From positions 124,001-188,000 of the forward strand of contig NZ_LVYV01000055.1 of the NCBI RefSeq assembly GCF_001618955.1: a DNA stretch of 64,000 nt. Direction: 5' to 3'. Below, piece after piece: positions 32,224-61,320 of this stretch. The position numbers and the translations under genes are program-made. This DNA is from Tardiphaga robiniae. GTDB taxonomy: Bacteria > Pseudomonadota > Alphaproteobacteria > Rhizobiales > Xanthobacteraceae. Numbering within the stretch: the stretch's first letter is position 1; every line of letters begins with the position of its first letter. A model generated the notes under the pieces. The model had not been told where the DNA came from. It saw nothing but the letters and a program-made list of their open reading frames with translations, and did not search any database.

Positions 32224-32480
32224 TGCAAACCTTGAATCTGTCCATCGCCCCTAGCGCCACGATCATACCAACATAAACGAAGGCTTGCTCCCAATACGAC
32301 GCATTGACGGCTGAAGCGATGGCCGACCTGCAATTCGCTTGCCGCATAACCTGATTACACGGCGCCGGCGCCGAAAAAAATCAACAATTTCAGCGCTGTT
32401 CTCGATGTCTGCCGGGAAGAACCTTGAAAATCACCATGACGTACCTTAAGACTAGCCAACGAATGATGGTTGAGGATCAC

Positions 32481-33503
32481 GTGAGAAAGCGCGCATTGGT
32501 CACAGGGGGCGCGGGCCAAGACGGGTGGTATCTCATCAACCTCCTGCTCGCGCACGGATATGACGTTTTTGCCCAATCCAGGCATGCCGTCGATTCAGAA
32601 ATACACGGTGACCGCGTTCACTGGCACATCGGCAACCTGACCGACGAGGCCTTTTTGAGGAACCTGCTCGTCACAGCGGCGCCGGATGAAATCTACAATC
32701 TGGCAGCAGTGTCGAGGCCCTCGATCTCCTGGGACATTCCGATCGAGACGGCCTTGTTGAATTCCCTGGTGCCGCACCGCATCTGCGAATTCATTCGCCG
32801 CGAGGCGCCAACCTGCCGCCTGTTTCAGGCATCGTCATCGGAAATTTATGGCGACACGCGGGCCGAAGTTCAGGACGAGGACACGCGTGCCAATCCGGGA
32901 TCGCCATACGGCATCTCGAAGGCCTATGCACATCAGATCGTCGGTGCCTATCGCCGGCAATATGGTTTGCACCTGTCGTGCGGCATCCTCTTCAACCATG
33001 AAAGCCCGCGACGACCGCTCAATTTTGTGTCCCAGAAGATCGCACACGCCGCAGCCGCGGCATCGCTAGGCCTGACCGAAACGCGCGAGCTCGACGAGCG
33101 TGGCAAGCCGATCCTGTTCAATGGCAAGCTCTATCTGGGCGACATCACGGTGCGCCGGGATTTCGGCTTCGCGGGTGACTTCGTCGAGGCGATGCGCCTG
33201 ATCGTGCAGAATGATGCCCCGGCGGATTATGCGGTTGGCAGCGGACAGGCGCATTCCATCGCGGAATTCTGCGAGGTCGCTTTCAAGGTCTGCGGCCTCG
33301 ACTGGAAGAAATACGTTTCAGTCGATGAGACGCTGCTCCGCAAGGTCGACAGCCATTTCACGCAGGCCGACCCGTCCAAATTGAAGGCGAAACTCGGCTG
33401 GCAGCCCAAGGTCGATTTCCTCGGGCTGGTGGAAACGATGGTTCAGGAGCGCGTGCGCATCTTGAAGCTGTCGCAGGCTTCCACAGATGCGACGGGCACC
33501 TGA
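32481..33503 (+). CDS. GDP-mannose 4,6-dehydratase-like SDR (divergent paralogue)
   Basis: This is an extended SDR of the Gmd group. It has the nucleotide site RALVTGGAGQDGWYL, the catalytic triad S/S-E in QASSSEIYG (Ser119-Ser120-Glu121) and Tyr143-xxx-Lys147 in SPYGISKAYA, plus the Gmd segment [16 protein letters not shown]. Canonical Gmd has T-S-E in the first motif (as in the copy at 55315), so the substrate may differ; GDP-mannose or a GDP-heptose are both possible. Start: GTG 32481 is five bases after GAGG and gives MRKRALVTGG, matching the family N-terminus. Upstream in-frame starts are ATG 32466, ATG 32436 and TTG 32424. It leads a four-gene plus-strand operon ending at 36489. Confidence 0.85.
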   Translation: MRKRALVTGGAGQDGWYLINLLLAHGYDVFAQSRHAVDSEIHGDRVHWHIGNLTDEAFLRNLLVTAAPDEIYNLAAVSRPSISWDIPIETALLNSLVPHRICEFIRREAPTCRLFQASSSEIYGDTRAEVQDEDTRANPGSPYGISKAYAHQIVGAYRRQYGLHLSCGILFNHESPRRPLNFVSQKIAHAAAAASLGLTETRELDERGKPILFNGKLYLGDITVRRDFGFAGDFVEAMRLIVQNDAPADYAVGSGQAHSIAEFCEVAFKVCGLDWKKYVSVDETLLRKVDSHFTQADPSKLKAKLGWQPKVDFLGLVETMVQERVRILKLSQASTDATGT

Positions 33504-36568: not shown

Positions 36569-37285
36569 TTAGAGCTTGAAGCCCGCCGCGATCGCGTCAT
36601 CGGCGAACATCTTGACAGTCTCGAGCGAGTAATCATCGAGGTTCTTGCCGACCAGCGACAGCTTCTTGAGGATGTCATTGGTCACGGTGATGACGTGGCA
36701 GCCAATCGAATCTGCGTGGAAGATGTTCAGCAATTCGCGCGGGCTCGCCCAGATTAGCTCCGATGCCGGCGCCACCTTCAACAGCTCGACAGCCGCAGCC
36801 ATCATGGCCAACGGGTCCTGACCGGTGTCCGCGACACGGCCAGCAAAGACCGACACATAGCTCGGCACGTTCGGATCCAGTGCGGCAACGACATCACGCA
36901 CTTGGGTCAGGGTCATCAGCGCGGTGACGTTTAGCTTCACCTTCTTCGCCGCAAGCTTCTCGATCAGCTTGTAGCTTGTCTCGCGCTTGGTGTTCATCAC
37001 CGGAATCTTGACGTAGACGTTTTCGCCCCAGCTGGCGATTTCCAATGCCTGACGCTCCATGTCGGCGAATTCATCCGAAAACACTTCGAGCGAGATCGGT
37101 CGATCCGGAATGGCCTTCAGGATGTCGAGCGAGAACGCCTTGTAATCCGTGATCCCTTCCTTGCGCATCAGGGTGGGGTTGGTGGTCAGGCCCTTCACGA
37201 AAGGCTTGGCGTACATTTCCAGCATGCCGGCCTTGTTGGCACCGTCAGCGAAAATTTTGACGGTCAGATCCTCAACTTTTTTCAT
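36569..37285 (-). CDS. Transaldolase-family protein, 238 aa
   Basis: This is a TIM-barrel class I aldolase of the small transaldolase/fructose-6-phosphate aldolase type. The Schiff-base Lys is K93 in ENVYVKIPV; other motifs are VKGLTTNPTLM, KVKLNVTALMTLTQV and PSYVSVFAGRVADTGQDP. Such enzymes transfer or release dihydroxyacetone units and can make or consume sedoheptulose-7-phosphate, the GmhA substrate. It is the last gene of the heptose operon and overlaps gmhB by 14 bp, so a dedicated role in this pathway is likelier than central metabolism. Whether it supplies S7P or extends a sugar by three carbons is open. Confidence 0.88.
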   Translation of the reverse strand: MKKVEDLTVKIFADGANKAGMLEMYAKPFVKGLTTNPTLMRKEGITDYKAFSLDILKAIPDRPISLEVFSDEFADMERQALEIASWGENVYVKIPVMNTKRETSYKLIEKLAAKKVKLNVTALMTLTQVRDVVAALDPNVPSYVSVFAGRVADTGQDPLAMMAAAVELLKVAPASELIWASPRELLNIFHADSIGCHVITVTNDILKKLSLVGKNLDDYSLETVKMFADDAIAAGFKL

Positions 37286-37820
37286 GTTCGTTCTCGCTCT
37301 CTATGATTTCTAGCGCTTCGTGTGTCGTTAAAACCTTGTGGTCGTAATTGGTGGGCGCGGCTTCGCGGTAACCGCGATCAACAAAGATGGTGCGGCTTCC
37401 CGCTGCGATACCTGCTTCGACATCGCCGCGCCGGTCGCCAATCATGTAACTGCGTGCCAAATCGACATTGAACTCCGCAGCGCCTGCCAGAAGCATTCCG
37501 GGCCGCGGCTTTCGGCAATCACAGCCATCGCCGTTGTCGTGGAAGCAGACGAAGAACTTGTCGATCGCGGGAATTTCCCGCGCAATCGCCGCGTTAATCC
37601 CCTCAACGGTGGATTTCGGCGTCGTACCGCGCGCAACGTCCGGCTGGTTCGTCACCACGATCAGGGCGAACCCGCGATCCTTCAGGCGCTGCAGAGGCTC
37701 TCGAAGTCCGCCATAGATCTTGAGATCCTCAACCCGTGCCGGAGGGTAGGATTTTCCCTCGCGAACCACCGGATGATTCAGCACGCCGTCACGATCGAGG
37801 AAGATCGCCCGTGACTTCAT
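37272..37820 (-). CDS. gmhB: D,D-heptose 1,7-bisphosphate phosphatase (GmhB type)
   Basis: GmhB removes the 7-phosphate from D-glycero-D-manno-heptose 1,7-bisphosphate. This is a 182-residue HAD phosphatase with the nucleophile motif AIFLDRDGVLN (Asp9, Asp11), VVTNQPDVARG as motif II, the GmhB zinc site C92-x-H94 ... C100-x-C102 (CFHDNGDGCDCRKPRPG) and MIGDRRGDVEAG as motif IV. The frame extends to 37904, but ATG 37820 overlaps the upstream gmhA stop by 4 bp and begins right before motif I. Confidence 0.92.
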   Translation of the reverse strand: MKSRAIFLDRDGVLNHPVVREGKSYPPARVEDLKIYGGLREPLQRLKDRGFALIVVTNQPDVARGTTPKSTVEGINAAIAREIPAIDKFFVCFHDNGDGCDCRKPRPGMLLAGAAEFNVDLARSYMIGDRRGDVEAGIAAGSRTIFVDRGYREAAPTNYDHKVLTTHEALEIIESENEHEKS

Positions 37821-38434
37821 TTGGTGGGGCTCGCGGTCCCTACCGCCGATTCCCACTTGGTCTGGTTGGCCTTGAGCTTCGGGTGCGACACCAGCAGATG
37901 CCACACCACCGCCTGGAAGGCCTCGGAATGCGGTGTGACGTTGTCCGGATTAACCGTCGGCACGATCACGCAGGCATCGGCGACCTGCGCCGTGTAGCCG
38001 CCGTCGCGACCGACCACGCCCATGATCTTGGCGCCCACCGACTTGGCATACTGCAGCGCCATCACAAGGTTGGGGCTGATGTTCTTTTCGAGATTGCCGC
38101 CGCCGACCGAGAAAATGAAGATCGCGTCCTTGGCGAGTAGCTTGCTGACCTTGAGCCACTCTACGAAAATCGTGGCCCAGCCTTCGTCGTTGGTGCGCGC
38201 CGTCAGTTCGGACACGTTGTCGGTCGGCGCATAGCTCTCGATACCGACGATCTTGCGGAAATCGTTCACCGCATGGCCGCAATTGCCCGCGCTGCCGCCG
38301 ACGCCCAGAAAGAAGATGCGGCCGCCATCGGCTTTCACCGTCGCGAGCAGATCCGCCATTTTCTCAATTGGGGCCACATCCATCTTGGCGATGATATCGG
38401 CTGATTCACGCATGTGCTGTACTGCGTAGCTCAT
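37817..38434 (-). CDS. gmhA: SIS-domain phosphoheptose isomerase (GmhA-like)
   Basis: GmhA isomerises sedoheptulose-7-phosphate to D-glycero-D-manno-heptose-7-phosphate, the first committed step. The SIS fold shows in GRIFFLGVGGSAGNCGHAVN and AIFIFSVGGGNLEKN. The segment TPHSEAFQAVVWHLLVSHP supplies Gln and His ligands of the usual metal site. The metal-site Glu of enterobacterial GmhA appears as Asp in AVNDF, a feature I associate with the divergent isomerases found with HddA. The assignment relies partly on its neighbours kinase, phosphatase and guanylyltransferase. 205 residues, start ATG 38434. Confidence 0.87.
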   Translation of the reverse strand: MSYAVQHMRESADIIAKMDVAPIEKMADLLATVKADGGRIFFLGVGGSAGNCGHAVNDFRKIVGIESYAPTDNVSELTARTNDEGWATIFVEWLKVSKLLAKDAIFIFSVGGGNLEKNISPNLVMALQYAKSVGAKIMGVVGRDGGYTAQVADACVIVPTVNPDNVTPHSEAFQAVVWHLLVSHPKLKANQTKWESAVGTASPTK

Positions 38435-38436
38435 GA

Positions 38437-39141
38437 TTACTTTCCCCTACCCCTGAAATAGTCCGCCGCTTCGGCGAGACCTTTGTGAGAGCCGATTTCG
38501 TAAAATCGCTCCTGGACTTCGAAACCTGCAAGTTGCCCGGCCAGCGACAGTCGATGATAGACGTCTGCCAGGTCGAATGCCTCATCGCCTTGCTCGGCGG
38601 CCAGAATATCCGCCGATATCGCACCCAAGCCGTAATCGATGTGCTTCATCTCGGGCGTCGGCAAGCGCTTGTTGTACTCCACAATCACATCGTCCGAGAA
38701 CAGGACGTTGCTCTTGTCCCACTGATCCGCGTTGCGCTGCACTGTCATCAACGCAGGCTTGCCGCTGTTCAGGAAACGGTCCTCTACAGCATTGAAATCG
38801 ATCGGCAGATACGAGTCTCCATACAGGACCAAAAACTGCGAGTCCAGAAGCGGCAAGGCCTGCTTCAGTGCGCCCCCGGTTCCCAGCAATTTAGGCCAGT
38901 CCTGCGAGTAGGATACCGACAATCCGCTGGCAGAGCCGTCACCGACAACATCCCGGATCTGCTCCCCAAGAAACCCGATGCACATCACCACCCGGGTGAC
39001 GCCCTGTCCGCGCAGGTAAGCCAGTTGACGCAGAATAAATGGCTCACCCGCTACATCGACCAGCGCTTTGGGAATCCTTTCCGTGATTGGCTTCAGCCGC
39101 GTCGCCAAGCCCCCGGCGAGGATCGCAACTGGCAGCTTCAC
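38437..39141 (-). CDS. hddC: Heptose-1-phosphate guanylyltransferase (HddC-like nucleotidyltransferase)
   Basis: This sugar-phosphate nucleotidyltransferase would condense GTP with D-glycero-alpha-D-manno-heptose-1-P to GDP-heptose. The N-terminal signature is VAILAGGLATRLKPITERIP followed by KALVDVAGEPFI. The middle has LLGTGGALKQALPLL and VLYGDSYLPIDF (metal-binding Asp). A C-terminal FYEIGSHKGLAEAADYF is the usual end of this family. 234 residues. GTP/heptose specificity is inferred from linkage to hddA and gmhAB; mannose-1-P or another sugar cannot be excluded. It overlaps hddA by 4 bp. Confidence 0.87.
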   Translation of the reverse strand: MKLPVAILAGGLATRLKPITERIPKALVDVAGEPFILRQLAYLRGQGVTRVVMCIGFLGEQIRDVVGDGSASGLSVSYSQDWPKLLGTGGALKQALPLLDSQFLVLYGDSYLPIDFNAVEDRFLNSGKPALMTVQRNADQWDKSNVLFSDDVIVEYNKRLPTPEMKHIDYGLGAISADILAAEQGDEAFDLADVYHRLSLAGQLAGFEVQERFYEIGSHKGLAEAADYFRGRGK

Positions 39142-40118
39142 GAGAACAATACTTTCGTGCCTTCAAAATCGAACGCGAAACGCACTTCTTCCAAGCCGGC
39201 TTTCGCCATGGAGTGTCGCAGCTTGTTGCGATCGCTGGCGTAGAACAACAGAAAGCCACCGCCGCCTGCGCCGACCAGCTTGCCGCCCGCGGCGCCGTTC
39301 TTCATGCCAATGTCATACCACTCGTCAATGTGGGAATTGCTCATACCGCCGGAGCGTCGCTTCTTGTGCTCCCAGTGCTCATGCATCAGAGCACCGAAAT
39401 CCTCCGTCTTGCCGGTCTCGAGCATAACCTGGCTCTTCAGGCCTAGCTCTTTGACGAAGTGCAGGTTGGCGATCATGTCCTTGTCGCTGCTCTTTGTCCT
39501 GGTGTTCTGGTCCTTCAGGATCGAGCCGGCGCTACGTGAAAAGCCGGTGAAGAACAGCAGCAGATTGTCCTCCAGATCGAACTTCGTATCCATCGAGATA
39601 TTCAGCGGGACGACATCGACGCTGTTGTCCGGATTGAACGTGAAGCAGGTCAAGCCGCCACAGGCCGCGATGTACTGATCTTGCTTGCCGATTGGCTCGC
39701 CCAGGCGGTCGATCTCAATCTCGCAGGCGAGCTCGGCGAGATCCTTCGGCTCAATCTGACGCATCCGATGGACGTAGAGCGCTTTCAAAAGTGCCGTGGT
39801 GAAGCTGCCCGACGATCCCAGCCCGGTGCCCGAGGGAATGTCCGCCAGCGTGGTAATCTCGACCTGCGGGGTTTTGAAGCCGAGCATCTTGATCGCTTCG
39901 CGGATGATCGGATGCTGAACTTCGTCCGTCGCCTGCACGTGTTCAAGCTGCGAGTACTTGAGATAGATTCCTTCGGTGAACGGCCGCATCACATTGATGT
40001 AGACGTATTTGTTGATCGCTCCTGCGATCAGGAAACCGCCATGCTCGCGATAATACGATGGCAGATCCGTGCCGCCGCCGCCGAGGCTGATTCTCAGTGG
40101 GCTACGCGTTGTGATCAT
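39138..40118 (-). CDS. hddA: D-glycero-alpha-D-manno-heptose-7-phosphate kinase (HddA)
   Basis: HddA is a GHMP kinase that phosphorylates the anomeric carbon of heptose-7-P in the GDP-heptose branch. MITTRSPLRISLGGGGTDLP is the characteristic HddA start. The ATP-binding GHMP motif is PSGTGLGSSGSFTTAL (about residues 95-110) and the C-terminal motif is KLVGAGGGGFLLFY. The segment LGEPIGKQDQYIAACGG is the family catalytic region. 326 residues from ATG 40118; the frame opens 9 codons further upstream at 40145. It overlaps the oxidoreductase gene by 17 bp, so the two are co-translated. Confidence 0.93.
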   Translation of the reverse strand: MITTRSPLRISLGGGGTDLPSYYREHGGFLIAGAINKYVYINVMRPFTEGIYLKYSQLEHVQATDEVQHPIIREAIKMLGFKTPQVEITTLADIPSGTGLGSSGSFTTALLKALYVHRMRQIEPKDLAELACEIEIDRLGEPIGKQDQYIAACGGLTCFTFNPDNSVDVVPLNISMDTKFDLEDNLLLFFTGFSRSAGSILKDQNTRTKSSDKDMIANLHFVKELGLKSQVMLETGKTEDFGALMHEHWEHKKRRSGGMSNSHIDEWYDIGMKNGAAGGKLVGAGGGGFLLFYASDRNKLRHSMAKAGLEEVRFAFDFEGTKVLFS

Positions 40119-41124
40119 AACCAGACATCCTGTAAATCTTTTCAATGATGTGAAGTGCTTCGACGGCGTCGCGGATGCCGGCCGCCGGCTGACGCTTCAG
40201 CCGGATATCTTCCAGAAACTCGGCGAATTCAACGTCCCAGGAGTTATCCGCCATCGGATATTCCCAGCTCGTCGTTTCCGGCGGGCCCATTTCCGGCAGC
40301 ATCTTGTAGAACGTCAGACGTTCGGCGCCATAGCTGCCGCCGAGGCCGTTGATATCGATCTTGCCGTCGCGCCCGTAAATCTCGAACGAAAACGTATTCT
40401 TCCATTCAGTGCAGCTGGCATGCAGGAAGGCCACCTTCCGCTCCACCGTCTTGAGGAGCAGGAAGCCGTTGTCGTCGACCGGCATGTCCCAGTAATAGGT
40501 CGCTGCAAAACCGTCCACTTCGGCGAAATCGCCGAGAAACCAGCGTGCCAGATCGACCAGATGCGGCCCCTGATCGATCAGCTCGCCGCCGCCGGACTTC
40601 TTCGGATCGGAGCGCCATTCGCGATCGTAACCGACACGGCCGCCATGGCCGTAGCGCGCACGCAGGAACATCAGCGGACCAAGCTCGCCCGAGGTGACGA
40701 GCTGATACGCCTTCTGCAGCGCGCGGTGATAACGGTGATTGAAGCCGACGCGAACCAGACAGCCCTTGGCGGCCGCTGCCTCGGCGAGCCCTGCGAGCTC
40801 TGCGGCATTGCGCGCTGCCGGCTTCTCGATCAGCACATTCTTGCCTGCGGCCACGGCGCCGTGGGCGATCTCCGCCAGCGTGTCGTGCAGGGTCGCGATC
40901 ATGACGATGGAGACCTCCGGGTTGGCCACCGCCTGCTGCCAGTCGGTCACTGCGCGGCAGCCCGGCGCAGTCGCCGCCAGCCGATCGGCGCGGTCCTGTG
41001 CGATGTCGGCGCAGACCACCAGACGCGCATTGCCGAGCGCCTTGGCGCGCTTGTGGCCGATCAGCCCGCAGCCGATGATGGCAACGCCCGGTGCACTCGC
41101 AGTTCCGCTCACTTGTCGCCCCAT
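40102..41124 (-). CDS. Gfo/Idh/MocA family oxidoreductase
   Basis: This is an NAD(P)-dependent dehydrogenase of the glucose-fructose oxidoreductase/inositol dehydrogenase family. Rossmann motif GVAIIGCGLIGHKRAKAL, the EKPAARNAAE loop with catalytic Lys, and SGGGELIDQGPHLVDLARWF containing the conserved Asp/His pair. 340 residues, normal length. In sugar loci such enzymes oxidise a nucleotide-sugar or inositol hydroxyl, or reduce a keto group. It lies between the SDR and the heptose kinase with overlaps of 16 and 17 bp, so it probably acts on an intermediate of this pathway. Substrate unknown. Confidence 0.88.
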   Translation of the reverse strand: MGRQVSGTASAPGVAIIGCGLIGHKRAKALGNARLVVCADIAQDRADRLAATAPGCRAVTDWQQAVANPEVSIVMIATLHDTLAEIAHGAVAAGKNVLIEKPAARNAAELAGLAEAAAAKGCLVRVGFNHRYHRALQKAYQLVTSGELGPLMFLRARYGHGGRVGYDREWRSDPKKSGGGELIDQGPHLVDLARWFLGDFAEVDGFAATYYWDMPVDDNGFLLLKTVERKVAFLHASCTEWKNTFSFEIYGRDGKIDINGLGGSYGAERLTFYKMLPEMGPPETTSWEYPMADNSWDVEFAEFLEDIRLKRQPAAGIRDAVEALHIIEKIYRMSGYDHNA

Positions 41125-41978
41125 TCCATCTTGCGGTCACGCCCGGTGATCCGCCGCAGCGTATATGCATCGCTGCTGTTGAGTTCGTCGAGATGCTTCG
41201 GCCAGTCTTCCCAACGGTCCCACTGCGCGGCGATCAATTTGCCGGTAATGCCATCGCTGTCAGCCGAACCGAGGAACACACACAGCGCTGCACCCACATC
41301 AAGCGGCGTGCCGCCCTCGCCCGCGATCTTCTTCATCCTATCGTAGAACTGGTGGCCGACCTTTTCCGGGCCAGCCTCGAGTAGTTGCTCCATCATCCGC
41401 GTGACCAGCGCACCCGGCGCGATCGCGTTGACGTCAATGTGGTCATCCTTGCATTCCAGCGCCAACGACTCCGTAAACCGCACGACACCGGCTTTCGATG
41501 CCGCATAGGCCGTGATTGCCGGCATCGGGTTTGCCGCCCCGCCCCCGGAGATGTTGACGATCTTGCCGTAACGCTGCGCGCGAAACATCGGCATCGCGGC
41601 ACGCGAGACGTAAACGAGTCCGAGCAGATTGATGCGAATGGCATCGACCCATTCATCCAGGTCGATATCCTCGATATTGCCCATCGGGCCATAGATGCCG
41701 GCATTGTTGACGAGGATATCGAGCCGCGGAAATTCGGAACGCACCGTTGCGAACAACGCATCGACGTCCGCGCGTTCGCCGACATCACCAACGACGGCGA
41801 CGATGCGCGCGCCCGTCGCAAGCAGCGGTTCAAGCGCCTGCTGTTGCGCAGCGAGCTTATCTGCACTGCGCGCGCACAGCACGACACTGGCGCCGTTGAC
41901 AACATACTGACGAGCGATTTCGGCGCCGAGCCCCTGGCTGGCGCCGGTGATGACGGCAGTGCGCCCCTGAAGCTTCAT
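41109..41978 (-). CDS. Short-chain dehydrogenase/reductase (classical SDR), 289 aa
   Basis: This is a classical SDR with TAVITGASQGLGAEIARQY (cofactor loop), ILVNNAGIYGPMG, active-site Ser in VNISGGGA and Tyr-xxx-Lys in TAYAASKAGVVRFTESLALE. A C-terminal extension of ~35 residues (ending RKMEWGDK) exceeds the usual 250-residue length and is rich in Trp and Asp. It overlaps the dehydrogenase-like gene upstream by 4 bp. Expected chemistry is a carbonyl/alcohol redox step on a sugar or cyclitol. A keto-sugar reductase is the most likely reading, without proof. Confidence 0.87.
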   Translation of the reverse strand: MKLQGRTAVITGASQGLGAEIARQYVVNGASVVLCARSADKLAAQQQALEPLLATGARIVAVVGDVGERADVDALFATVRSEFPRLDILVNNAGIYGPMGNIEDIDLDEWVDAIRINLLGLVYVSRAAMPMFRAQRYGKIVNISGGGAANPMPAITAYAASKAGVVRFTESLALECKDDHIDVNAIAPGALVTRMMEQLLEAGPEKVGHQFYDRMKKIAGEGGTPLDVGAALCVFLGSADSDGITGKLIAAQWDRWEDWPKHLDELNSSDAYTLRRITGRDRKMEWGDK

Positions 41979-43270
41979 TGCACCTTACCTGCAATAATAT
42001 AATCGAGCCCCGCGAGACCCGACAGCTGCTTCGATGCAAATGCGTTTTGATCAATCAGCAACGAACGTTGCATGGATGGAACAAGCCTTGCGAAATCGAG
42101 TTCGCGAAACTCGGGCCACTCGGTGAGCAGCACCACAGCCTCGCTATCGGCGAACACAGCATCCACCGATGGCGCGATGGTAACGGCCGAACCCAACGGC
42201 TCGGGCAAGCTCGCCACCTTCGGATCGAACACGGTCACTTGGGCGCCGTCGGCTATCAATTCTTGGATCACCTCGATCGCCACGGAGCGCCTGATCGCGT
42301 CGGTCCCGGCTTTGTAGGCGAGCCCGAGAACGCCAATTCTCTTGCCCTGGAGCCTTCCGAGTCGGCCGCGCACATGCCTGACAACCCACCCCTTGTGATG
42401 ATCGTTGCTTTCCAGCACTGCGGTCAACACGGAAACCCGCACGTCGACATCCTTCGCAATGGCCTTCAGAAACTGAACGTCGCGCGCCAGTGTACCGCCG
42501 CCGAAAGCAGATCCTGCCCGCACATAGGCCTTCTTGCCGATCCGGGGGTCAAGCCGCAGTGCGCCTTCTACTTCACTCATATCGGCGCCGACGCCCTCGC
42601 AGACCGAGGCAATCTCGTTTGTAAAAGTCACGCAGGTCGCGAGAAACGCATTGAGCGCGTGCTTGACCATTTCGGCGGACTCGACACGCGTCCATAGCAG
42701 CGTATCGCAGAACGGCGTCAGTATCGGTTCGATGACCCGGCGCGCAGCATCGCCGCGAATGCCGATGACGATACGTTCCGACTGCGTGAAAACCCGGATC
42801 GCGTCGCCGAGGCGAAGGTTCTCCGGCGAATAGGCGAACGAAACCTGGCGGCCGTTCGCGACCTCCGCGAAATCCTTCTCCAGCACCGCCGTACTGCCGA
42901 CAGGCACTTGCGACGAGATCAGAACGACGGCGCCGTCCTTCAGATGCGCGAACGTGCTGCGAATACGGTCGAGCACATAATCGACATCGGCAACGTCGTC
43001 GTCATCAACGGGCGTGTCGAAATTCACCCACAGCAGATCGGCAGACGCGACTGCCGACCCGACATCGCTGGTGAAGCTCAGCTTGCCGTCCTGCAATCCC
43101 TGCGACAGCATTGCATTGAGGCCGGGCTCGAACAGAGGCGCTTTGCCGATGCTCAGCTCTGCCGCTGCTTCCTGTGTCTCTGCCAGGCCGATAGTAACGA
43201 TCCCGCGCGATGCGAGACAGGCGGCCGTCACCGAGCCAAGATGCCAAAGACCATAGACACAGACCGTCAT
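41975..43270 (-). CDS. UDP-glucose/GDP-mannose dehydrogenase homologue lacking the catalytic Cys
   Basis: This 431-residue three-domain protein has the nucleotide-sugar dehydrogenase layout: N-terminal Rossmann CVYGLWHLGSVTAACLA, FAYSPENLRLGDAI, central helix with Lys203 and Asn207 (EMVKHALNAFL), and a C-terminal domain with GVLGLAYKAGTDAIRRS. The active-site loop, normally GGSCxxKD, reads AFGGGTLARDVQFL. The nucleophilic Cys is Thr260 (ACA, plus-strand 42491-42493) while the Asp264 base remains. Without Cys the second oxidation through a thioester should fail, so this enzyme may stop at the aldehyde, catalyse a different two-electron oxidation, or be inactive. It overlaps both neighbours by 4 bp. 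Confidence 0.88.
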   Translation of the reverse strand: MTVCVYGLWHLGSVTAACLASRGIVTIGLAETQEAAAELSIGKAPLFEPGLNAMLSQGLQDGKLSFTSDVGSAVASADLLWVNFDTPVDDDDVADVDYVLDRIRSTFAHLKDGAVVLISSQVPVGSTAVLEKDFAEVANGRQVSFAYSPENLRLGDAIRVFTQSERIVIGIRGDAARRVIEPILTPFCDTLLWTRVESAEMVKHALNAFLATCVTFTNEIASVCEGVGADMSEVEGALRLDPRIGKKAYVRAGSAFGGGTLARDVQFLKAIAKDVDVRVSVLTAVLESNDHHKGWVVRHVRGRLGRLQGKRIGVLGLAYKAGTDAIRRSVAIEVIQELIADGAQVTVFDPKVASLPEPLGSAVTIAPSVDAVFADSEAVVLLTEWPEFRELDFARLVPSMQRSLLIDQNAFASKQLSGLAGLDYIIAGKVQ

Positions 43271-44223
43271 GGCCGCGCCTCGACCACCCAGGGATTAGCA
43301 ATCAGATATTCCAACGTCGTTACGACACCCTGCTGGATCGACATCTTGGGAGTCCAGCCCAGCGCACGGATACGGCTGCAATCGAGGAAGATGAACGGAT
43401 TGTCACCGATCCAGCCGCGCTCGCCGCCGGTGTATTCCAGCGTCGGCTTCAACTGCAGGCGCTCACAGATCCAGCCGATCGACTGATTGACCTCGCAATA
43501 CTCGTCCTGGCCGAGATTGAAGATATTAACGCGATCCGTCGCTCGCTCGACGGCGATCATGATCGCGTCGATGCAGTCCTGCACATAAAGATAGGATTTG
43601 CGTTGCTTGCCGTTGCCCAGAACTTCAAGCTTCGACGGATCGGCCAGAAGCTTCTGATAGAAATCGAAGACGTGGCCGTGCGTGTAGCGTTCGCCGAGGA
43701 TCGACACGAAACGGAAGATGAAGCCCTGGAAGCCGAAGCCTTCGCAATAGGATGATATCAACCCCTCTGCCGCGATCTTGGAGTTGCCATAGAGCGATGT
43801 TTGCACCGGAAATGGCGCATCTTCCGGCGTCGGGAACACCTTGGCTTCGCCGTAGACCGAGCCTGTCGATGAGAACGCGATCTTCTTGATGCCGTTGGCG
43901 CGCATCGCCTCCAGCACGTTGTAGGTCGCGATCAGGTTCTGCTCGATATCCTTGAAAGGGTGATGCGTACCAAAACGAACGTCTGCATTCGCAGCCAGGT
44001 GGAACACCATATCACAGCCGGCTATCGCCGATCGCAATGCATCGGTATTCAACAGATCCGCCTCAACCAATTTGAAGTTGGCAGACTTCAACGCACCCTC
44101 GATAAAGCGACGCTGACCGGTGACGAAATTGTCGTAGCCGACCACGCTATGCCCGGCTGCAAGCAGCCGGTCCACCAGGTTGCTGGCAATGAAGCCCGCG
44201 GCTCCGGTTACGAAAGCTTTCAT
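43267..44223 (-). CDS. NAD-dependent epimerase/dehydratase, 318 aa
   Basis: This is an extended SDR related to GalE/WbpP-type nucleotide-sugar 4-epimerases. Cofactor motif AFVTGAAGFIASNLVDRLL, FSSTGSVYGEA with active-site Ser/Thr, and Tyr-xxx-Lys in TSLYGNSKIAAEGL. The middle Gly of the usual GFIGS is Ala (GFIAS). It would epimerise or oxidise C4 of a nucleotide-linked sugar in this operon, perhaps the GDP-heptose. It lies 16 bp after gtrA and overlaps the Cys-less dehydrogenase by 4 bp. Confidence 0.88.
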   Translation of the reverse strand: MKAFVTGAAGFIASNLVDRLLAAGHSVVGYDNFVTGQRRFIEGALKSANFKLVEADLLNTDALRSAIAGCDMVFHLAANADVRFGTHHPFKDIEQNLIATYNVLEAMRANGIKKIAFSSTGSVYGEAKVFPTPEDAPFPVQTSLYGNSKIAAEGLISSYCEGFGFQGFIFRFVSILGERYTHGHVFDFYQKLLADPSKLEVLGNGKQRKSYLYVQDCIDAIMIAVERATDRVNIFNLGQDEYCEVNQSIGWICERLQLKPTLEYTGGERGWIGDNPFIFLDCSRIRALGWTPKMSIQQGVVTTLEYLIANPWVVEARP

Positions 44224-46775: not shown

Positions 46776-49112
46776 TCAATTCGGCGACACATCCCGGATT
46801 ACGCCCGGAAAGCTCTCGGCCAGCGGGTATTTGCCCTCAAGAGACGAAATGCCGGCATTCCAGCCCAAGCGTCCACCTTCCGAATTTCTCAAGCGGGACG
46901 AAGGCAACGGTATATCGACCTCCACCACATTGCCGTTGCACGTCAGCCGCAACCGCTTGTCATGCAGCATCAGTTCAAATTTTAGGTTTATCGTCTTGCC
47001 CCGGCAGTTACCCTCCGGCTTCAGACGTACCGCCGGGTAGCCCCAGTGGTCATATCGGAATTCATTGAACTCGCCAAACTTCATGGTCAGCAGCGACGCA
47101 TTGCCGGGCTCGCCTGCCACCCAGAGCGGGTACCAGTTGGCGAGATCAATTTCCTTGTCCACCGAGAGTACGAAAGTGCGCGATACGGTGATCCGAGCTT
47201 GATCGAGAATATGCTTCATATCCTCTTGTGAGTTCGTCTCATAAATAAATGCCAGTGAGTTGGCGAAGATCAACCGCTTTTCCATGCCATCGATCTTTTT
47301 CCAGCTGACGATGGCAGCCGACGAGATCGGCACGAGATCAGCGTCTGTCAGCTGCTCCTTGTGGCGCGTGCTACCCACTATGGGGACTAGGGACCGAACG
47401 CGATTATCACGCGCAAAGTAATTGAACCAAGACGTCCGGAACTCCCCTCCGCCGACGTCGTCATCGGACCACAGCACCAGCACGTCGCGTCCGTGAAGCG
47501 CTTCCAGGTATCGCCTGACGCTCTGAAAATCCGGATCCATCAGGAGATGAGCGCCGCCACGATGCGTAGACGCAACGGTCGATGCTTTGGCGGACGCATT
47601 GGTGAGACCGATGACCAGGTACCCGCAGAGCACGACCATCGTCGCACCAAGCGCAGAAGCATTATGCCTCAAACTGGCATGGTACTCGTTGAACAACTTC
47701 GTTCCCATCACAAGCCAAAACACGTGCAGAGGCCACACGATGAGCAACAGCTTGTAGAACTGGTATGGATATCCCGAACCTTTTCCGAGAATGAAAGGGC
47801 CAAGCGGCACGCACATCAACATCGCCAAAGCCAATGTCAGTGCCGAAAACGATCTGAAGCTGTAACTGATGAGCCCGATCGCGTTGCAGGCGATCATCAA
47901 AAACATCGCCCACATGATTGTCTGGACAATCCACTTGGATGGCAATGCGACCTGATTGCCGAGCCAAAGCCGGACAAGCCCCTCAGGTTTGTATGCCCAT
48001 GGATAGATCTCACCGAAGACAGATCCAGATGCAATACGGGTAAAAATGCCCGGCCGAATCAAAAGCTCGAAGTTGACAGTGAAGGCAATGAGAACAGCGG
48101 CGGCAATCCACATGAACAGTATCGCGCGAGACGAGCCGGTTGGGGCCGAGATGAAGTTGGCTGGCAGCCAAGCGCGGATAAATGTGAGGCTGAGAACGCC
48201 CTTCACCACGGCGCAGATAATCGCAATCGCAATCGCGATCGACATCAACTCCGTATAAACGGCCGCAATCACCGACAGCAGCGCGCCGGCGATCAGCGCC
48301 GATCGCCAGTCCGGCCGCTCGATCAATCGATCGACCGCGACAGGCCATAGCAATATGAACGGCACGCTCAGCGCCTGCGAGAGGAAGCCTTCAAGATGGA
48401 TGGTTGCGATGGCGGGGCTGAGCGCACCGGCCAAAGCAGCAAGACAGGACACCGGAGAGAACGCGGCAAACCGGCTGGCCAGCGCGAGAAAGCTGAAGAA
48501 CATCAGAAAAGGCGCCAGTAGAATCGTCGGCCCGAAGCTCTGCTGGGCGTCGACACCAGAGGATACCATCAGGAACGCGTGCAGAACCGATTGGCCGATC
48601 CTGTCGTTCTTGAAATACTGCGCCACTTGGAGGAAACCCTGGTCGGCGGCGGTGGAATGGAATGGAAAATCGCCGAAAAACTGTGCCAGAGACGTGTAGT
48701 TGAACTGGTCGACCCAGCCGTAACCGAAATAGCTGCTTGCTCCGAGCTGGACCAACCCGACGCCGTGAGTGAAATAGACAATCAGGCCCAGGCCAAGAGT
48801 GGCGTGTGGCAACGGAAACAGCATAACCCGCACTGTTTTCCGTGACAGCACGTAAATCCAAGCCGCCGCCGCCGCCAGCCAGATCAGGACGGCGGAAATG
48901 GCAATCGTGACGTCGAGGTACACGAGATTTTGGCTGATTAGAACGATGAGCCCCGCACCAGCCAGTGGCGCGTAAATCCAAACATCCCGAGCACCAGCCT
49001 TCAGCCGGAAATACGAAGTTGCCAGGATGACGAATGGAACGCCAACCGCAAAGCAACTGACCAGGGCAACGAACACGACACGGCCGGTCAGGGCAAATTG
49101 CACGATCGACAT
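46776..49112 (-). CDS. Large polytopic membrane protein, possible GT-C glycosyltransferase
   Basis: I do not recognise a named family. From ATG 49112 (MSIVQFALTGRVVFVALVSC) the 778-residue protein has about a dozen hydrophobic segments over the first ~540 residues. A soluble region follows that includes LEALHGRDVLVLWSDDDVGG, then an all-beta C-terminus (LRLTCNGNVVEVDIPLP). This layout is seen in GT-C type transferases and O-antigen-modifying GtrC proteins. A frame to 49259 exists, but ATG 49112 with GCGGAAC upstream fits a membrane-protein N-terminus. It lies 180 bp upstream of the GtrB-like gene on the same strand and could be the third Gtr component. Confidence 0.7.
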   Translation of the reverse strand: MSIVQFALTGRVVFVALVSCFAVGVPFVILATSYFRLKAGARDVWIYAPLAGAGLIVLISQNLVYLDVTIAISAVLIWLAAAAAWIYVLSRKTVRVMLFPLPHATLGLGLIVYFTHGVGLVQLGASSYFGYGWVDQFNYTSLAQFFGDFPFHSTAADQGFLQVAQYFKNDRIGQSVLHAFLMVSSGVDAQQSFGPTILLAPFLMFFSFLALASRFAAFSPVSCLAALAGALSPAIATIHLEGFLSQALSVPFILLWPVAVDRLIERPDWRSALIAGALLSVIAAVYTELMSIAIAIAIICAVVKGVLSLTFIRAWLPANFISAPTGSSRAILFMWIAAAVLIAFTVNFELLIRPGIFTRIASGSVFGEIYPWAYKPEGLVRLWLGNQVALPSKWIVQTIMWAMFLMIACNAIGLISYSFRSFSALTLALAMLMCVPLGPFILGKGSGYPYQFYKLLLIVWPLHVFWLVMGTKLFNEYHASLRHNASALGATMVVLCGYLVIGLTNASAKASTVASTHRGGAHLLMDPDFQSVRRYLEALHGRDVLVLWSDDDVGGGEFRTSWFNYFARDNRVRSLVPIVGSTRHKEQLTDADLVPISSAAIVSWKKIDGMEKRLIFANSLAFIYETNSQEDMKHILDQARITVSRTFVLSVDKEIDLANWYPLWVAGEPGNASLLTMKFGEFNEFRYDHWGYPAVRLKPEGNCRGKTINLKFELMLHDKRLRLTCNGNVVEVDIPLPSSRLRNSEGGRLGWNAGISSLEGKYPLAESFPGVIRDVSPN

Positions 49113-49376
49113 GCTAGTTCCGCTTAGTTCGATCACCTCAAAACCCGTTTTGGATGGGCGGCGCAGGCGACTTCGTGTTGAAATTGCCTTGATGCACTGC
49201 CTGTCCACTATTCCGGGTCGTTTGTCCAACGCAACTGCCTGAAGCAAAAGGCTATACACAGGCTTCTAATCAGTCGAAAAATAGGCTTGGAAGCATGCAG
49301 CGAGACGTCCCGGCCCTTACCAACCGCGGCGATGTGATCTAAGACCGCCTACCCCGTAGCCGGACCCCGATACTTC

Positions 49377-51614
49377 ATGCTCAGCGCCAGCCTGTCCCAT
49401 CCCCTGCCCTCTGCGCTCATCGTACTGGCGACCTTTCTGCTGATGCCCTGGCCCGGCTACGCGCTTCTGCATCTGCTGGGATTCGGCCGGCACCGCTGGT
49501 CCGCTGCAGTCTTCGCCGGACCGGCCGTCACGCTCGCACTGTGGATCACCGTGCTATCGGGCGCCGCATGGGCCTCAATTTCGCTGCGGACTATCTTCGG
49601 TCCGATCTGGATTGGAACTCTGGTTCTGGCTGCGCTGGGTGTGGCGCTGCGATGGTCCATCCATAGTCACGTGGCCGCCGCAGGCGAAACAAAGCACGAC
49701 GTGGTTCTGCTTTGGATCACTGCAGGTGTCCTGCCCTTCGTTATCATGCCAGCGACTCTGCGCTTCGGCATCGCCGACTTCGTCAATTCGACCTATGCGG
49801 ATCCCTGGTCCTACGCCATGGTCTCCGACTATCTGTCCACCGTTGCCAGAGGAACCGAGGGCGGACTGTCGGCGCTGCATCAGTATGCTTCCCATTTGAT
49901 GAATACCCGCAACGCATCATCCGCCATTCTGGCGCACTTTGCTTATGGCTTCGGAGGCATCAAGGCAGATCAGACAATGACTCTGTTCTGTCTGTTGTTG
50001 CTGTTCACCAACGCGACTGCCTTGATCGCCTTTGCCCGCAGCGTTTTCGAACGGACGGAAGCTGCACTGTGCCTCGCCCTGTTGGCAGGCCTGGGTTGGC
50101 CAGCCAACATCGTCTTTGCCGGAAACTTCGATCAACTCCTGCTGCTGCCGCTGTTGCCAATGATTGCAACCTTCGCGCTGCGTGCGAGTGACAAAATTAA
50201 CCTGGTCACAGCAGGCGTCATGATCGGGCTGTTCAGTGCCGCGGCCCTGTTTGCGTATGTGGAGCTGGCATTCATCGGCGTCGTGATCGCGATGACGTTC
50301 GTCATCTCGCCCCGGCTGCGCCTCGGGCCGGCGATCGGCCGGGCGCTTCTGGTGACCTGCATCGCGGTGCCCATTCTGATTGTTCTGGCCTGGCCCGGAC
50401 TGGGCGCTTTGATGACAATGCTTAAGGGTCAGTATGCCCTGACTACAGCCGCGACAGCGCGACCGGGGGACGGCTATTTTATCGGTCTGCTGACCGCCTC
50501 GCGACTTCCAGACACCCTATGGGCAATGGGCGGCGAATTTCCACAGACCCGCTTGATCGCTCTTCCGTGGCTGCTGGGAACCCTGCTCAGCGCCCTTGCG
50601 CTGCTCGGCGCCTGGTTGGAACGGCGGCGCTGGGCGGTCATTATCGGGCTCCTGGCCGTGGCTGCAGCGCTGTTTCATTTCAATTTTCGCGAGCATTACA
50701 GCTATGCGACGTATAAAATTGTCAGCATCAATTCCTGGATGCTCGGTTTTCTCGCCGTCTCCGGCGGTATCGGGCTCACGCGCTGGTTGAAACCCCGCTT
50801 ACCCCGGCGACTATCGTTAACCACTGTTGTCACGACCCTGACACTAGCCATTGCGATCGATCGTACCGTCGTTCAGGCTAATGTCATCCGATTCAAGCAC
50901 AACGCGTTGCAGCAGCAAGCCTATCGTGAGGCTCAGCAGATCAATGCCATCGTTCAGCATGCGCCGACCCTGCTCGCATCCCGCGACGATCTCGCCAATG
51001 AATGGGCCGTATTTTATCTGTCTGACCCGCCGGTGCTGATTGCGCCCTATCGCCTCTATATGGCGCAGGCCCACGTTATTCCGTTCATGGAGCGTGCCAA
51101 GCCAATCGATATCGCCTCAATCCGCTACATCGTAACGGACCGCAATGACGCGATCCGTGCATCAGTCTGGGGTGCCAGGCGGATCTGGGACGGCAACGCT
51201 TACAGCCTTTGGGAGATCAATGACGCCAACTGGGTCGTCCTAGCCGACGTCATCAATCCCAATGGCTTTGAACCCGGTGGAATTTGGCTCGGCGGCAAAA
51301 CAACAGAGTTGCTGGTCGTGACGGCACAGCCGGGCCTAGCAACTCTCGACGCCAGCTTGCAGCCTGGGTCACGGGCTCCCATAGGCGCGGAACTGTTTCA
51401 TGCTACCATCAAAGACCACGCAGGTTCCCGCGCCATCGAGGTGACGGCAGGCGAGAATCGGCTTCCGATCAACGTGACCGCCGGCAGGAGCTTCATCAGC
51501 ATCGGCATCGACGACGCCCCCACTACGCCGCCGCCGGGTACCGCGGATTCTCGTCCGATGATCCTGCGGATGGTGAATTACGGAATCCAGCGAACCTCCC
51601 AGCCTTTACGCTGA
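49377..51614 (+). CDS. Large polytopic membrane protein, unknown family, 745 aa
   Basis: The protein starts MLSASLSHPLPSALIVLATF and carries about 12-13 hydrophobic segments to residue ~480. A periplasmic part follows with NEWAVFYLSDPPVLIAPYRL and a beta-rich C-terminus (FEPGGIWLGGKTTELLVV). An Asp/Glu-containing first loop (FGIADFVNSTYADPWSYAMV) resembles the catalytic loop of GT-C enzymes, but this is only suggestive. It is divergent from the polytopic protein at 46776 with ~264 bp between them, and upstream of an FkbM methyltransferase on the same strand. Confidence 0.65.
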   Translation: MLSASLSHPLPSALIVLATFLLMPWPGYALLHLLGFGRHRWSAAVFAGPAVTLALWITVLSGAAWASISLRTIFGPIWIGTLVLAALGVALRWSIHSHVAAAGETKHDVVLLWITAGVLPFVIMPATLRFGIADFVNSTYADPWSYAMVSDYLSTVARGTEGGLSALHQYASHLMNTRNASSAILAHFAYGFGGIKADQTMTLFCLLLLFTNATALIAFARSVFERTEAALCLALLAGLGWPANIVFAGNFDQLLLLPLLPMIATFALRASDKINLVTAGVMIGLFSAAALFAYVELAFIGVVIAMTFVISPRLRLGPAIGRALLVTCIAVPILIVLAWPGLGALMTMLKGQYALTTAATARPGDGYFIGLLTASRLPDTLWAMGGEFPQTRLIALPWLLGTLLSALALLGAWLERRRWAVIIGLLAVAAALFHFNFREHYSYATYKIVSINSWMLGFLAVSGGIGLTRWLKPRLPRRLSLTTVVTTLTLAIAIDRTVVQANVIRFKHNALQQQAYREAQQINAIVQHAPTLLASRDDLANEWAVFYLSDPPVLIAPYRLYMAQAHVIPFMERAKPIDIASIRYIVTDRNDAIRASVWGARRIWDGNAYSLWEINDANWVVLADVINPNGFEPGGIWLGGKTTELLVVTAQPGLATLDASLQPGSRAPIGAELFHATIKDHAGSRAIEVTAGENRLPINVTAGRSFISIGIDDAPTTPPPGTADSRPMILRMVNYGIQRTSQPLR

Positions 51615-61243: not shown

Positions 61244-61320
61244 GATCGCGGATTGCCTCACCAACCGTTGCTCCAACCTGAATTTAATCTCAATCCGGTT
61301 CCGCAGCAGCGAACCTCTGC

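What the first reader, a model, noticed from the sequence alone, without database searches (positions are those of the whole stretch)
41975..43270. Nucleotide-sugar dehydrogenase homologue with the catalytic cysteine replaced by threonine
UDP-glucose/GDP-mannose dehydrogenases oxidise twice through a Cys thiohemiacetal/thioester. In this otherwise complete 431-residue homologue the active-site loop is GGGT-LARD instead of GGSC-xxKD. Cys is Thr260 (codon ACA), and the Lys before the retained Asp264 is Arg. Lys203 and Asn207 are kept, so the protein does not look like a decaying pseudogene, and it is translationally coupled on both sides. A Cys-less enzyme could release the 6- or 7-aldehyde instead of the uronate. 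That would be an ideal acceptor for an aldol step by the transaldolase in the same operon.
Basis: partly seen in the sequence, partly recalled or inferred. Interest (0 to 1): 0.75.

Follow-up and report, generated by a model that had tools for sequence, protein, structure and literature searches.

The report
Cysteine-less sugar dehydrogenase in octose operon
A bacterial sugar-oxidising enzyme has lost its key catalytic cysteine in a consistent, old way and sits in a nine-gene operon that resembles the lincomycin antibiotic's eight-carbon-sugar pathway, so it most likely makes a ketone (or deoxy) form of a rare long-chain sugar rather than the usual acid.

Summary
The 431-residue gene at 41975-43270 (-) is a full UDP-glucose/GDP-mannose dehydrogenase homologue with GGGT-LARD in place of GGSC-xxKD. 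It is no isolated mutation: 40 of 40 readable close relatives (the window's own included, chosen by similarity; about ten phyla by record title, mostly metagenome bins) have Thr there; 25 of 25 ordinary homologues have Cys. Thr118 (water site) is Gln and Tyr10 (thioester hydrolysis) is His in 40 of 40; Lys204, Asn208 and Asp264 stay. dN/dS is about 0.1. The gene belongs to a nine-gene cassette whose families match eight of the nine genes for GDP-lincosamide (LmbR/N/P/K/O/M/L/Z); an SDR stands where the LmbS aminotransferase would be expected. A second Cys-less subfamily (Asn, 21 of 21) lies 10 kb past the window and elsewhere also sits with a transaldolase. Of 265 Bradyrhizobium genomes 13 have this transaldolase; 4 carry the Thr type, 9 the Asn type. 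Best reading: the substrate is a nucleotide-activated C8 sugar whose C6 is a secondary alcohol, so a ketone forms, probably with 6,8-dehydration as recalled for LmbL. Aldehyde release to the transaldolase is not supported. LmbL's sequence could not be fetched.

The parts
41975..43270 (-). UGDH-T: Cys-less nucleotide-sugar dehydrogenase homologue, 431 aa (Thr260, Arg263, His10, Trp9, Gln121, Leu154)
42479..42502 (-). active-site loop GGGTLARD (codons GGC GGC GGT ACA CTG GCG CGC GAC); most ordinary members have GGSC-xxKD
43235..43252 (-). Rossmann loop GLWHLG in place of GxGYxG
43267..44223 (-). EPI: extended SDR (epimerase/dehydratase family), LmbM-like role; found in the same locus in 35 of 35 loci
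41109..41978 (-). SDR: classical short-chain dehydrogenase; proposed 6-ketone reductase in the place of LmbS
40102..41124 (-). GFO: Gfo/Idh/MocA oxidoreductase, LmbZ/CcbZ-like role
39138..40118 (-). KIN: GHMP kinase, HddA/LmbP-like, 326 aa (ATG at 40118; the longer TTG ORF starts at 40145)
38437..39141 (-). NTase: sugar-1-phosphate nucleotidyltransferase (best NCBIfam models MurU and HddC types, below cut-off), LmbO-like role
37817..38434 (-). SIS: GmhA-type ketose/aldose phosphate isomerase, LmbN-like role; only match found in the genome (E <= 0.001)
37272..37820 (-). HAD: GmhB-type phosphatase, LmbK-like role
36569..37285 (-). TAL: transaldolase (TIGR02134, above cut-off), LmbR-like role; only TIGR02134 match found in the genome

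Best explanation
UGDH-T is a Cys-less member of the nucleotide-sugar dehydrogenase family that acts on a nucleotide-activated eight-carbon sugar (probably GDP-octose). Inferred steps: TAL joins a C3 unit to ribose 5-phosphate; SIS turns octulose 8-phosphate into octose 8-phosphate; KIN, HAD and NTase make NDP-octose; EPI adjusts a stereocentre; UGDH-T uses NAD+ to oxidise the secondary C6 alcohol to a ketone. A ketone cannot go on to an acid, so Cys260 and the hydrolysis machinery are no longer needed. Most likely the ketone then drives loss of the C8 hydroxyl with the hydride handed back to C8 (6,8-dehydration, the reaction recalled for LmbL). GFO epimerises the product and SDR reduces the C6 ketone where lincosamide producers aminate it. 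The product goes into a surface polysaccharide. Shown here: the residue pattern, its fixation, the cassette, the predicted fold. Inferred: substrate length, nucleotide, reaction, polymer.
For: Thr260, Gln121 (Thr118 site) and Leu154 (Glu145 site) in 40 of 40, while Lys203, Asn207, Glu150 and Asp264 are kept in 40 of 40; 25 of 25 ordinary homologues have Cys and Thr118. Roles of Cys260, Thr118, Tyr10, Lys204, Asn208 and Asp264 from PMC4794789 (passages). Predicted fold as in UGDH (TMq 0.88-0.93 in the 50 listed rows; mean pLDDT 92.4). The cassette holds the families of eight of the nine genes that lead to GDP-lincosamide (table in PMC4351081, passages); all nine cassette genes lie in 21 of 35 loci, and in two more the other seven genes sit together on another contig. 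LmbR joins F6P or S7P with R5P to an octulose (PMC5854111, passages); LmbM, LmbL, CcbZ and CcbS turn GDP-octose into GDP-lincosamide (PMC12945683, passages). A second Cys-less subfamily (Asn260 in 21 of 21) is also tied to TAL. Of 265 Bradyrhizobium genomes 13 have TAL (E <= 1e-40): 4 with the Thr type, 9 with the Asn type. Precedent for a ketone from this fold: human UGDH with UDP-4-keto-xylose, PDB 9dh0 (title only).
Against: LmbL/CcbL sequences could not be obtained, so homology to LmbL and its residue at the Cys site are untested. The split of reactions among LmbM/L/Z/S is recalled from a paper that is not held. TAL might serve something else; its hits in four loci (L026, L030, L033, L037) and in the two split ones are weak (25-32% identity). 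One uncut locus lacks SIS, HAD and TAL within 21 kb (L041) and one lacks GFO (L027). KIN and NTase score far below the HddA/HddC equivalog cut-offs and NTase scores best with MurU, a uridylyltransferase model, so the nucleotide is unproven. Leu at the Glu145 site and Arg263 also occur together in one Cys enzyme (C_L083), so these two alone mean little. The Trp/Thr in place of the second Rossmann glycine has no explanation yet.
Confidence: 0.6

Rival explanations
1. UGDH-T is a plain two-electron dehydrogenase: it releases the C6 ketone of an NDP-octose or NDP-heptose and NADH, and the SDR next door reduces the ketone from the other face, so that the pair is a 6-epimerase without any dehydration.
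For: SDR was found in 30 of 35 loci and in all 30 is the next of the nine genes after UGDH-T. The first-oxidation residues are kept. Needs no elimination chemistry.
Against: EPI could already epimerise. In the lincosamide pathway the corresponding enzyme is recalled as a dehydratase. No test here tells the two apart.
Confidence: 0.22
2. One reading: a Cys-less hexose-type dehydrogenase that releases a 6- or 7-aldehyde, which the operon's transaldolase uses as aldol acceptor.
For: Loss of Cys could stop the enzyme at the aldehyde; a transaldolase is in the operon.
Against: Enzymes for isomerising, phosphorylating and activating a sugar phosphate accompany it (SIS in 27, KIN and NTase in 29 each, HAD in 23 of 35 loci); the analogous LmbR works on ribose 5-phosphate. 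An aldehyde formed on a nucleotide hexose would need a transaldolase that acts on nucleotide sugars; I know of none (recalled).
Confidence: 0.06
3. UGDH-T has no catalytic role and is kept as a scaffold or regulator.
For: Loss of the catalytic Cys and of the second Rossmann glycine.
Against: Lys204, Asn208, Glu141 and Asp264 fixed in 40 of 40; dN/dS about 0.1; a second Cys-less subfamily keeps the same four.
Confidence: 0.04
4. The cassette is the bradyrhizose (C10 sugar) operon of photosynthetic Bradyrhizobium.
For: That 11-gene sugar cluster holds a dTDP-glucose-dehydratase-like gene and lies about 40 kb from rfaL (PMC4743980, sections 15, 16 and 19); EPI is of that superfamily.
Against: UGDH-T is in 4 of 265 Bradyrhizobium genomes and in 0 of the 27 with photosynthetic reaction-centre genes; TAL is in 2 of the 27, both with the Asn type.
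Confidence: 0.03

Closest known systems
LmbL/CcbL and the octose part of the lincomycin and celesticetin clusters (lmbR,N,P,K,O,M,L,Z,S)
   Same: Same set of enzyme families by role: transaldolase, isomerase, kinase, phosphatase, nucleotidyltransferase, epimerase, C8 dehydrogenase, oxidoreductase (PMC4351081 table, passages).
   Different: No aminotransferase (LmbS) in the cassette; a classical SDR instead. Polysaccharide-type surroundings. Sequence relation to LmbL not tested.
UDP-glucose 6-dehydrogenase / GDP-mannose 6-dehydrogenase (TIGR03026 family)
   Same: Three domains, predicted fold, and Lys204, Asn208, Glu141, Asp264 and Arg244 kept.
   Different: Cys260, Thr118, Tyr10, Glu145 and Gly9 replaced; four-electron oxidation through a thioester is not expected.
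GDP-heptose (GmhA-HddA-GmhB-HddC) pathway
   Same: Isomerase, kinase, phosphatase and nucleotidyltransferase of the same families.
   Different: Scores far below the HddA/HddC equivalog cut-offs and a transaldolase is added, which points to a longer chain.
Bradyrhizose operon of photosynthetic Bradyrhizobium (PMC4743980)
   Same: Sugar-modifying operon in related bacteria.
   Different: UGDH-T absent from the 27 phototroph Bradyrhizobium genomes searched.

Membership tests
Nucleotide-sugar dehydrogenases (UGDH/GMD, TIGR03026) | three Pfam domains PF03721, PF00984, PF03720 and family score | tested here: met
   (299.9 bits, cut-off 189.8)
Nucleotide-sugar dehydrogenases (UGDH/GMD, TIGR03026) | overall fold of UGDH | tested here: met
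   on a predicted model: (the 50 listed rows are all UGDH chains, TMq 0.88-0.93)
Nucleotide-sugar dehydrogenases (UGDH/GMD, TIGR03026) | catalytic Cys260 (invariant in 229 sequences, PMC4794789) | tested here: not met
   Thr in 40 of 40
Nucleotide-sugar dehydrogenases (UGDH/GMD, TIGR03026) | Thr118 (water site, invariant) and Tyr10 (thioester hydrolysis, 98%) | tested here: not met
   Gln and His, 40 of 40 each
Nucleotide-sugar dehydrogenases (UGDH/GMD, TIGR03026) | GxGxxG dinucleotide motif | tested here: not met
   second Gly is Trp in 39 of 40, Tyr in 1; GLWHLG was part of a scan pattern, but 8 of the 9 sequences not found by that scan (window included) also have Trp
Nucleotide-sugar dehydrogenases (UGDH/GMD, TIGR03026) | Lys204, Asn208 (first oxidation), Asp264 (general base), Glu141 | tested here: met
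   40 of 40 each
Nucleotide-sugar dehydrogenases (UGDH/GMD, TIGR03026) | four-electron oxidation to a uronate | not testable with these tools
   needs an assay
Lincosamide-type octose pathway | TIGR02134-type transaldolase together with a GmhA-type isomerase | tested here: met
   TAL in 23 and SIS in 27 of 35 loci
Lincosamide-type octose pathway | HddA-type kinase, GmhB-type phosphatase, nucleotidyltransferase, SDR epimerase, oxidoreductase, C8 dehydrogenase homologue | tested here: met
   (by family and role, not by sequence match to Lmb proteins)
Lincosamide-type octose pathway | C6 aminotransferase (LmbS) | tested here: not met
   none among the nine cassette genes; a classical SDR is there instead
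Lincosamide-type octose pathway | sequence orthology of UGDH-T to LmbL, and a Cys-less site in LmbL | not tested
Bradyrhizose operon | present in photosynthetic Bradyrhizobium | tested here: not met
   UGDH-T in 0 of 27 unnamed phototroph genomes
GDP-D-glycero-D-manno-heptose pathway (Hdd) | HddA and HddC equivalog scores | tested here: not met
   152.9 of 600 bits and 81.2 of 300 bits

The most novel reading that the evidence does not exclude
A lincosamide-like octose pathway is a widespread, horizontally moved polysaccharide module of bacteria outside the actinomycetes. In it the dehydrogenase fold has been turned, in two subfamilies (Thr and Asn types), into a nucleotide-sugar 6,8-dehydratase that needs neither the catalytic cysteine nor the usual Rossmann glycine. 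The antibiotic pathway would then be one branch of an older cell-surface sugar pathway.
Probability: 0.4. Interest if true: 0.75.

Novelty: new variant of a known kind. Interest (0 to 1): 0.62.

Why it matters
Annotation names such a protein a nucleotide sugar dehydrogenase (for example in the Lawsonia record), which suggests a uronic acid that it most likely cannot make. If the reading is right, a simple residue signature (His10, Gln at the Thr118 site, Thr or Asn at the Cys260 site) flags nucleotide-sugar enzymes that stop at the ketone or dehydrate. It would also predict a C8 sugar in surface polysaccharides of many bacteria, and give lincosamide sugar biosynthesis a cell-surface counterpart. 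It makes the role of the UGDH cysteine testable in natural enzymes that do without it.

Tried and rejected
Isolated mutation or decay: rejected. Bradyrhizose operon: rejected on the 27 phototroph genomes. Aldehyde donor for the transaldolase: not supported, see rivals. Gemmata loci L038 and L039 seemed to lack seven of nine genes; the seven are together on another contig of each genome (TAL there only 30% identical). LmbL: sought through plasmids (one Streptomyces transaldolase hit, no octose cluster in its annotation); not found. Literature: among the rows listed by searches (lists capped; one listed 15 of 807, 45 listed 20 of 253, 102 listed 15 of 870) I saw no title that describes this cassette in polysaccharide loci or a Cys-less UGDH clade; the library holds only open-licence papers. 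One search was wrong for six controls (reverse-strand frames) and was redone. One search likewise translated minus-strand loci on the wrong strand; only L002-L005 of it are meaningful.

Rows: 27 controls were fetched; two (L077, L080) turned out to be the Asn type and are counted apart, leaving 25. L044 (broken frame) and L045 (96 residues, cut by the contig end) were left out of the 40; L012, L047, L048, L050 and L070 were left out as the same places as L018, L013, L015, L020 and L014. W9 and H10 counts are biased for loci (patterns YGLWHLG and LWVNFDTP); T260, Q121 and L154 are not in those patterns. Of the eight Asn-type loci fetched, four (G232, G239, G406, G550) were chosen because they have TAL.
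Full report
WHAT IS THERE. The gene at 41975-43270 on the minus strand encodes 431 residues, starts with ATG and overlaps both neighbours by 4 nt. It hits the three Pfam domains of the UDP-glucose/GDP-mannose dehydrogenase family and passes the TIGR03026 cut-off (299.9 against 189.8 bits). AlphaFold gives a confident model (mean pLDDT 92.4, 28 sequences), and the 50 listed Foldseek matches are all UGDH chains with TMq 0.88-0.93.

THE SUBSTITUTION IS OLD AND COMES WITH OTHERS. Of 61 genomes (own included) from the same genus, family and order, orthologues were found in two others (85% and 50% identical); the other matches are at 41% identity or less and are ordinary UGDHs or the Asn type described below. 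Both orthologues keep GGT-LARD. In the family 10 of 391 genomes have it. A scan of genome contigs gave 33 loci (L018 is one of the two orthologues again), from Bradyrhizobium to records titled Chloroflexi, Planctomycetota, Acidobacteria, Nitrospirales, Lentisphaerae, Bacteroidetes, Verrucomicrobia or Opitutaceae, Kiritimatiellae, Elusimicrobia and Simkania, mostly metagenome bins. Five plasmid records carry it too (two Rhizobium, three Lawsonia intracellularis). I compared 40 close relatives (window included; chosen by similarity, not by the residue) with 25 ordinary homologues from the same or related genomes. In S. pyogenes numbering: Cys260 is Thr in 40 of 40 (Cys in 25 of 25 controls); Thr118 is Gln in 40 of 40 (Thr in 25 of 25); Tyr10 is His in 40 of 40 (Tyr in 24 of 25); Glu145 is Leu in 40 of 40 (controls: Glu 21, Pro 3, Leu 1); Gly9 is Trp in 39 and Tyr in 1 (Gly in 25 of 25). 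Lys204, Asn208, Glu141, Asp264, Arg244, Glu201, Asn219 and Asn287 are kept in 40 of 40; Lys320 in 38. The scan patterns contained W9 and H10, so these two are partly selected; Cys260, Thr118 and Glu145 sites were not in the patterns, and the nine sequences not found by that scan show the same Thr260, Gln121 and His10 (one with Tyr9). The positions come from an analysis of 229 family members (PMC4794789, passages). It lists Cys260 and Thr118 as invariant and gives Cys260 as covalent catalyst of the second oxidation, Tyr10 as catalysing the final thioester hydrolysis, Thr118 as holding the water that Asp264 activates, and Lys204/Asn208 as serving the first oxidation. A role of Glu145 in hydrolysis is only recalled; the passages place it near the diphosphate. 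So the residues tied to the second half-reaction are gone and those tied to the first stay. The gene is under purifying selection (dN/dS 0.079-0.143 against five relatives, dS 0.97-1.61).

THE CASSETTE. The nine genes from 36569 to 44223 are tightly packed in one direction: SDR epimerase (EPI), UGDH-T, classical SDR, Gfo/Idh/MocA enzyme, HddA-type kinase, nucleotidyltransferase, GmhA-type isomerase, GmhB-type phosphatase, transaldolase. In 35 loci (33 plus two plasmids) EPI is present in 35, SDR in 30, kinase and nucleotidyltransferase in 29 each, GFO in 28, SIS in 27, HAD and TAL in 23 each; all nine in 21. Many misses are in short contigs or contigs that end near the match. In two Gemmata genomes the other seven genes lie together on another contig. 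Uncut misses remain in L027 (GFO) and L041 (SIS, HAD, TAL), and TAL hits of 25-32% identity in L026, L030, L033, L037 and the two Gemmata genomes may be other aldolases. The order varies: SIS, HAD and TAL run on the opposite strand in L018 and L020 and come before EPI in L022 and L027, so the cassette has been shuffled without being lost.

WHAT IT RESEMBLES. The published table of lincosamide genes lists LmbK phosphatase, LmbL C8 dehydrogenase, LmbM epimerase, LmbN isomerase, LmbZ oxidoreductase, LmbP kinase, LmbO guanylyltransferase, LmbS aminotransferase and LmbR transaldolase as amino-sugar genes (PMC4351081, passages); LmbT, also so labelled, works after GDP-lincosamide (PMC12945683, passages). 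Eight of the nine have a counterpart here by family and role; LmbS has none and an SDR is extra. LmbR makes an octulose from ribose 5-phosphate with fructose 6-phosphate or sedoheptulose 7-phosphate (PMC5854111, passages). LmbM, LmbL, CcbZ and CcbS convert GDP-octose to GDP-lincosamide (PMC12945683, passages). I recall, from a paper that is not held, that these steps are 6-epimerisation, 6,8-dehydration, 4-epimerisation and 6-transamination; this is recall, not a result. I could not obtain LmbL itself.

WHY A KETONE. In UGDH the C6 of a hexose is a primary alcohol and goes to aldehyde and acid. On a C7 or C8 chain C6 is a secondary alcohol and ends as a ketone; nothing is left for Cys260 to do. 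This explains the pattern of losses and keeps. A ketone from this fold has a precedent in the PDB title of human UGDH with UDP-4-keto-xylose (9dh0). A 6-ketone also makes C7-H acidic, so loss of the C8 hydroxyl with hydride return (the 4,6-dehydratase trick moved two carbons on) is a natural next step; I rate this the most likely reaction but it is inferred.

A SECOND CASE. About 10 kb beyond the window end the same genome has another Cys-less homologue (L094:11426-12691), with Asn at the site. In 21 of 21 such proteins the residue is Asn, with Gln at the Thr118 site and His10 again, and Lys204, Asn208, Asp264 and Glu141 kept; unlike the Thr type they also differ at Thr83, Pro140, Asn287 and Arg327. 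The subfamily is in 19 of 248 family genomes. Its cluster has an HldE-like kinase/nucleotidyltransferase fusion, a Gfo/Idh/MocA-like enzyme and several SDRs. Of eight further loci fetched, seven show TAL, five SIS and six HAD; four of the eight had been chosen because they have TAL, and of the other four three have it (the fourth, L113, starts at the first base of its contig). In the window genome and in G011 the Asn cluster has no TAL, SIS or HAD within the 20 kb fetched, and only one TAL and one SIS were found in the whole window genome, so the window's TAL and SIS may feed both pathways. Among 265 Bradyrhizobium genomes 13 have TAL (E <= 1e-40); 4 of these have the Thr type and the other 9 the Asn type. 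The Asn type was not sought in the 252 genomes without TAL, apart from those in the family sample. A tree puts Thr and Asn types together on one side of a branch (100/98) and all 25 Cys enzymes on the other; the Thr group itself has weaker support (88/72), and long branches meet, so one or two losses of Cys cannot be told apart.

BRADYRHIZOSE. Because the relatives include Bradyrhizobium I tested whether this is the unsolved bradyrhizose operon, an 11-gene cluster conserved in photosynthetic strains (PMC4743980, sections 15, 16, 19). Rejected on that ground.

CONTEXT. The window genome belongs to the same family as a Bradyrhizobium record but to another genus. The cassette lies among glycosyltransferases, methyltransferases, GDP_Man_Dehyd-family genes and a GtrA-type membrane protein, which suits a surface polysaccharide; the polymer is not known.

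VERDICT. Real, conserved and informative; a new variant of a known enzyme family inside a lincosamide-like octose cassette.

Noticed in passing
L094:9848-17264 (window genome contig C55, about 196.8-204.3 kb; 9-16 kb past the window end): Second Cys-less UGDH subfamily (GGN-[LI]ERD) in its own cluster with an HldE-like fusion, Gfo/Idh/MocA-like enzyme and SDRs; found in 19 of 248 genomes of the family.
   Followed up: partly
L071:4808-9270: A viral contig (IMG/VR) carries EPI, KIN, SIS and TAL homologues followed by a short UGDH-like protein without the C-terminal domain, with His at the Cys site (GWGHIDRD), then a nucleotidyltransferase; no SDR, GFO or HAD match in the 16.6 kb fetched.
   Followed up: partly
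L073 (Lawsonia intracellularis plasmid 3), L072 (Rhizobium jaguaris plasmid): Both plasmid stretches carry all nine genes; in Lawsonia EPI is about 10 kb from UGDH-T.
   Followed up: partly
window 43235-43252 (GLWHLG): The second glycine of the Rossmann motif is Trp in the Thr type (39 of 40) and Thr in the Asn type (21 of 21); how NAD binds there is unexplained.
   Followed up: partly
window 32424-33503 and 55315-56406: Two GDP_Man_Dehyd-family (PF16363) genes and several glycosyltransferases flank the cassette, which may point to deoxyhexoses in the same polymer.
   Followed up: no
window 46776-49259, 49377-51614, 58388-61558: Three large proteins without a Pfam hit at E <= 1e-5.
   Followed up: no
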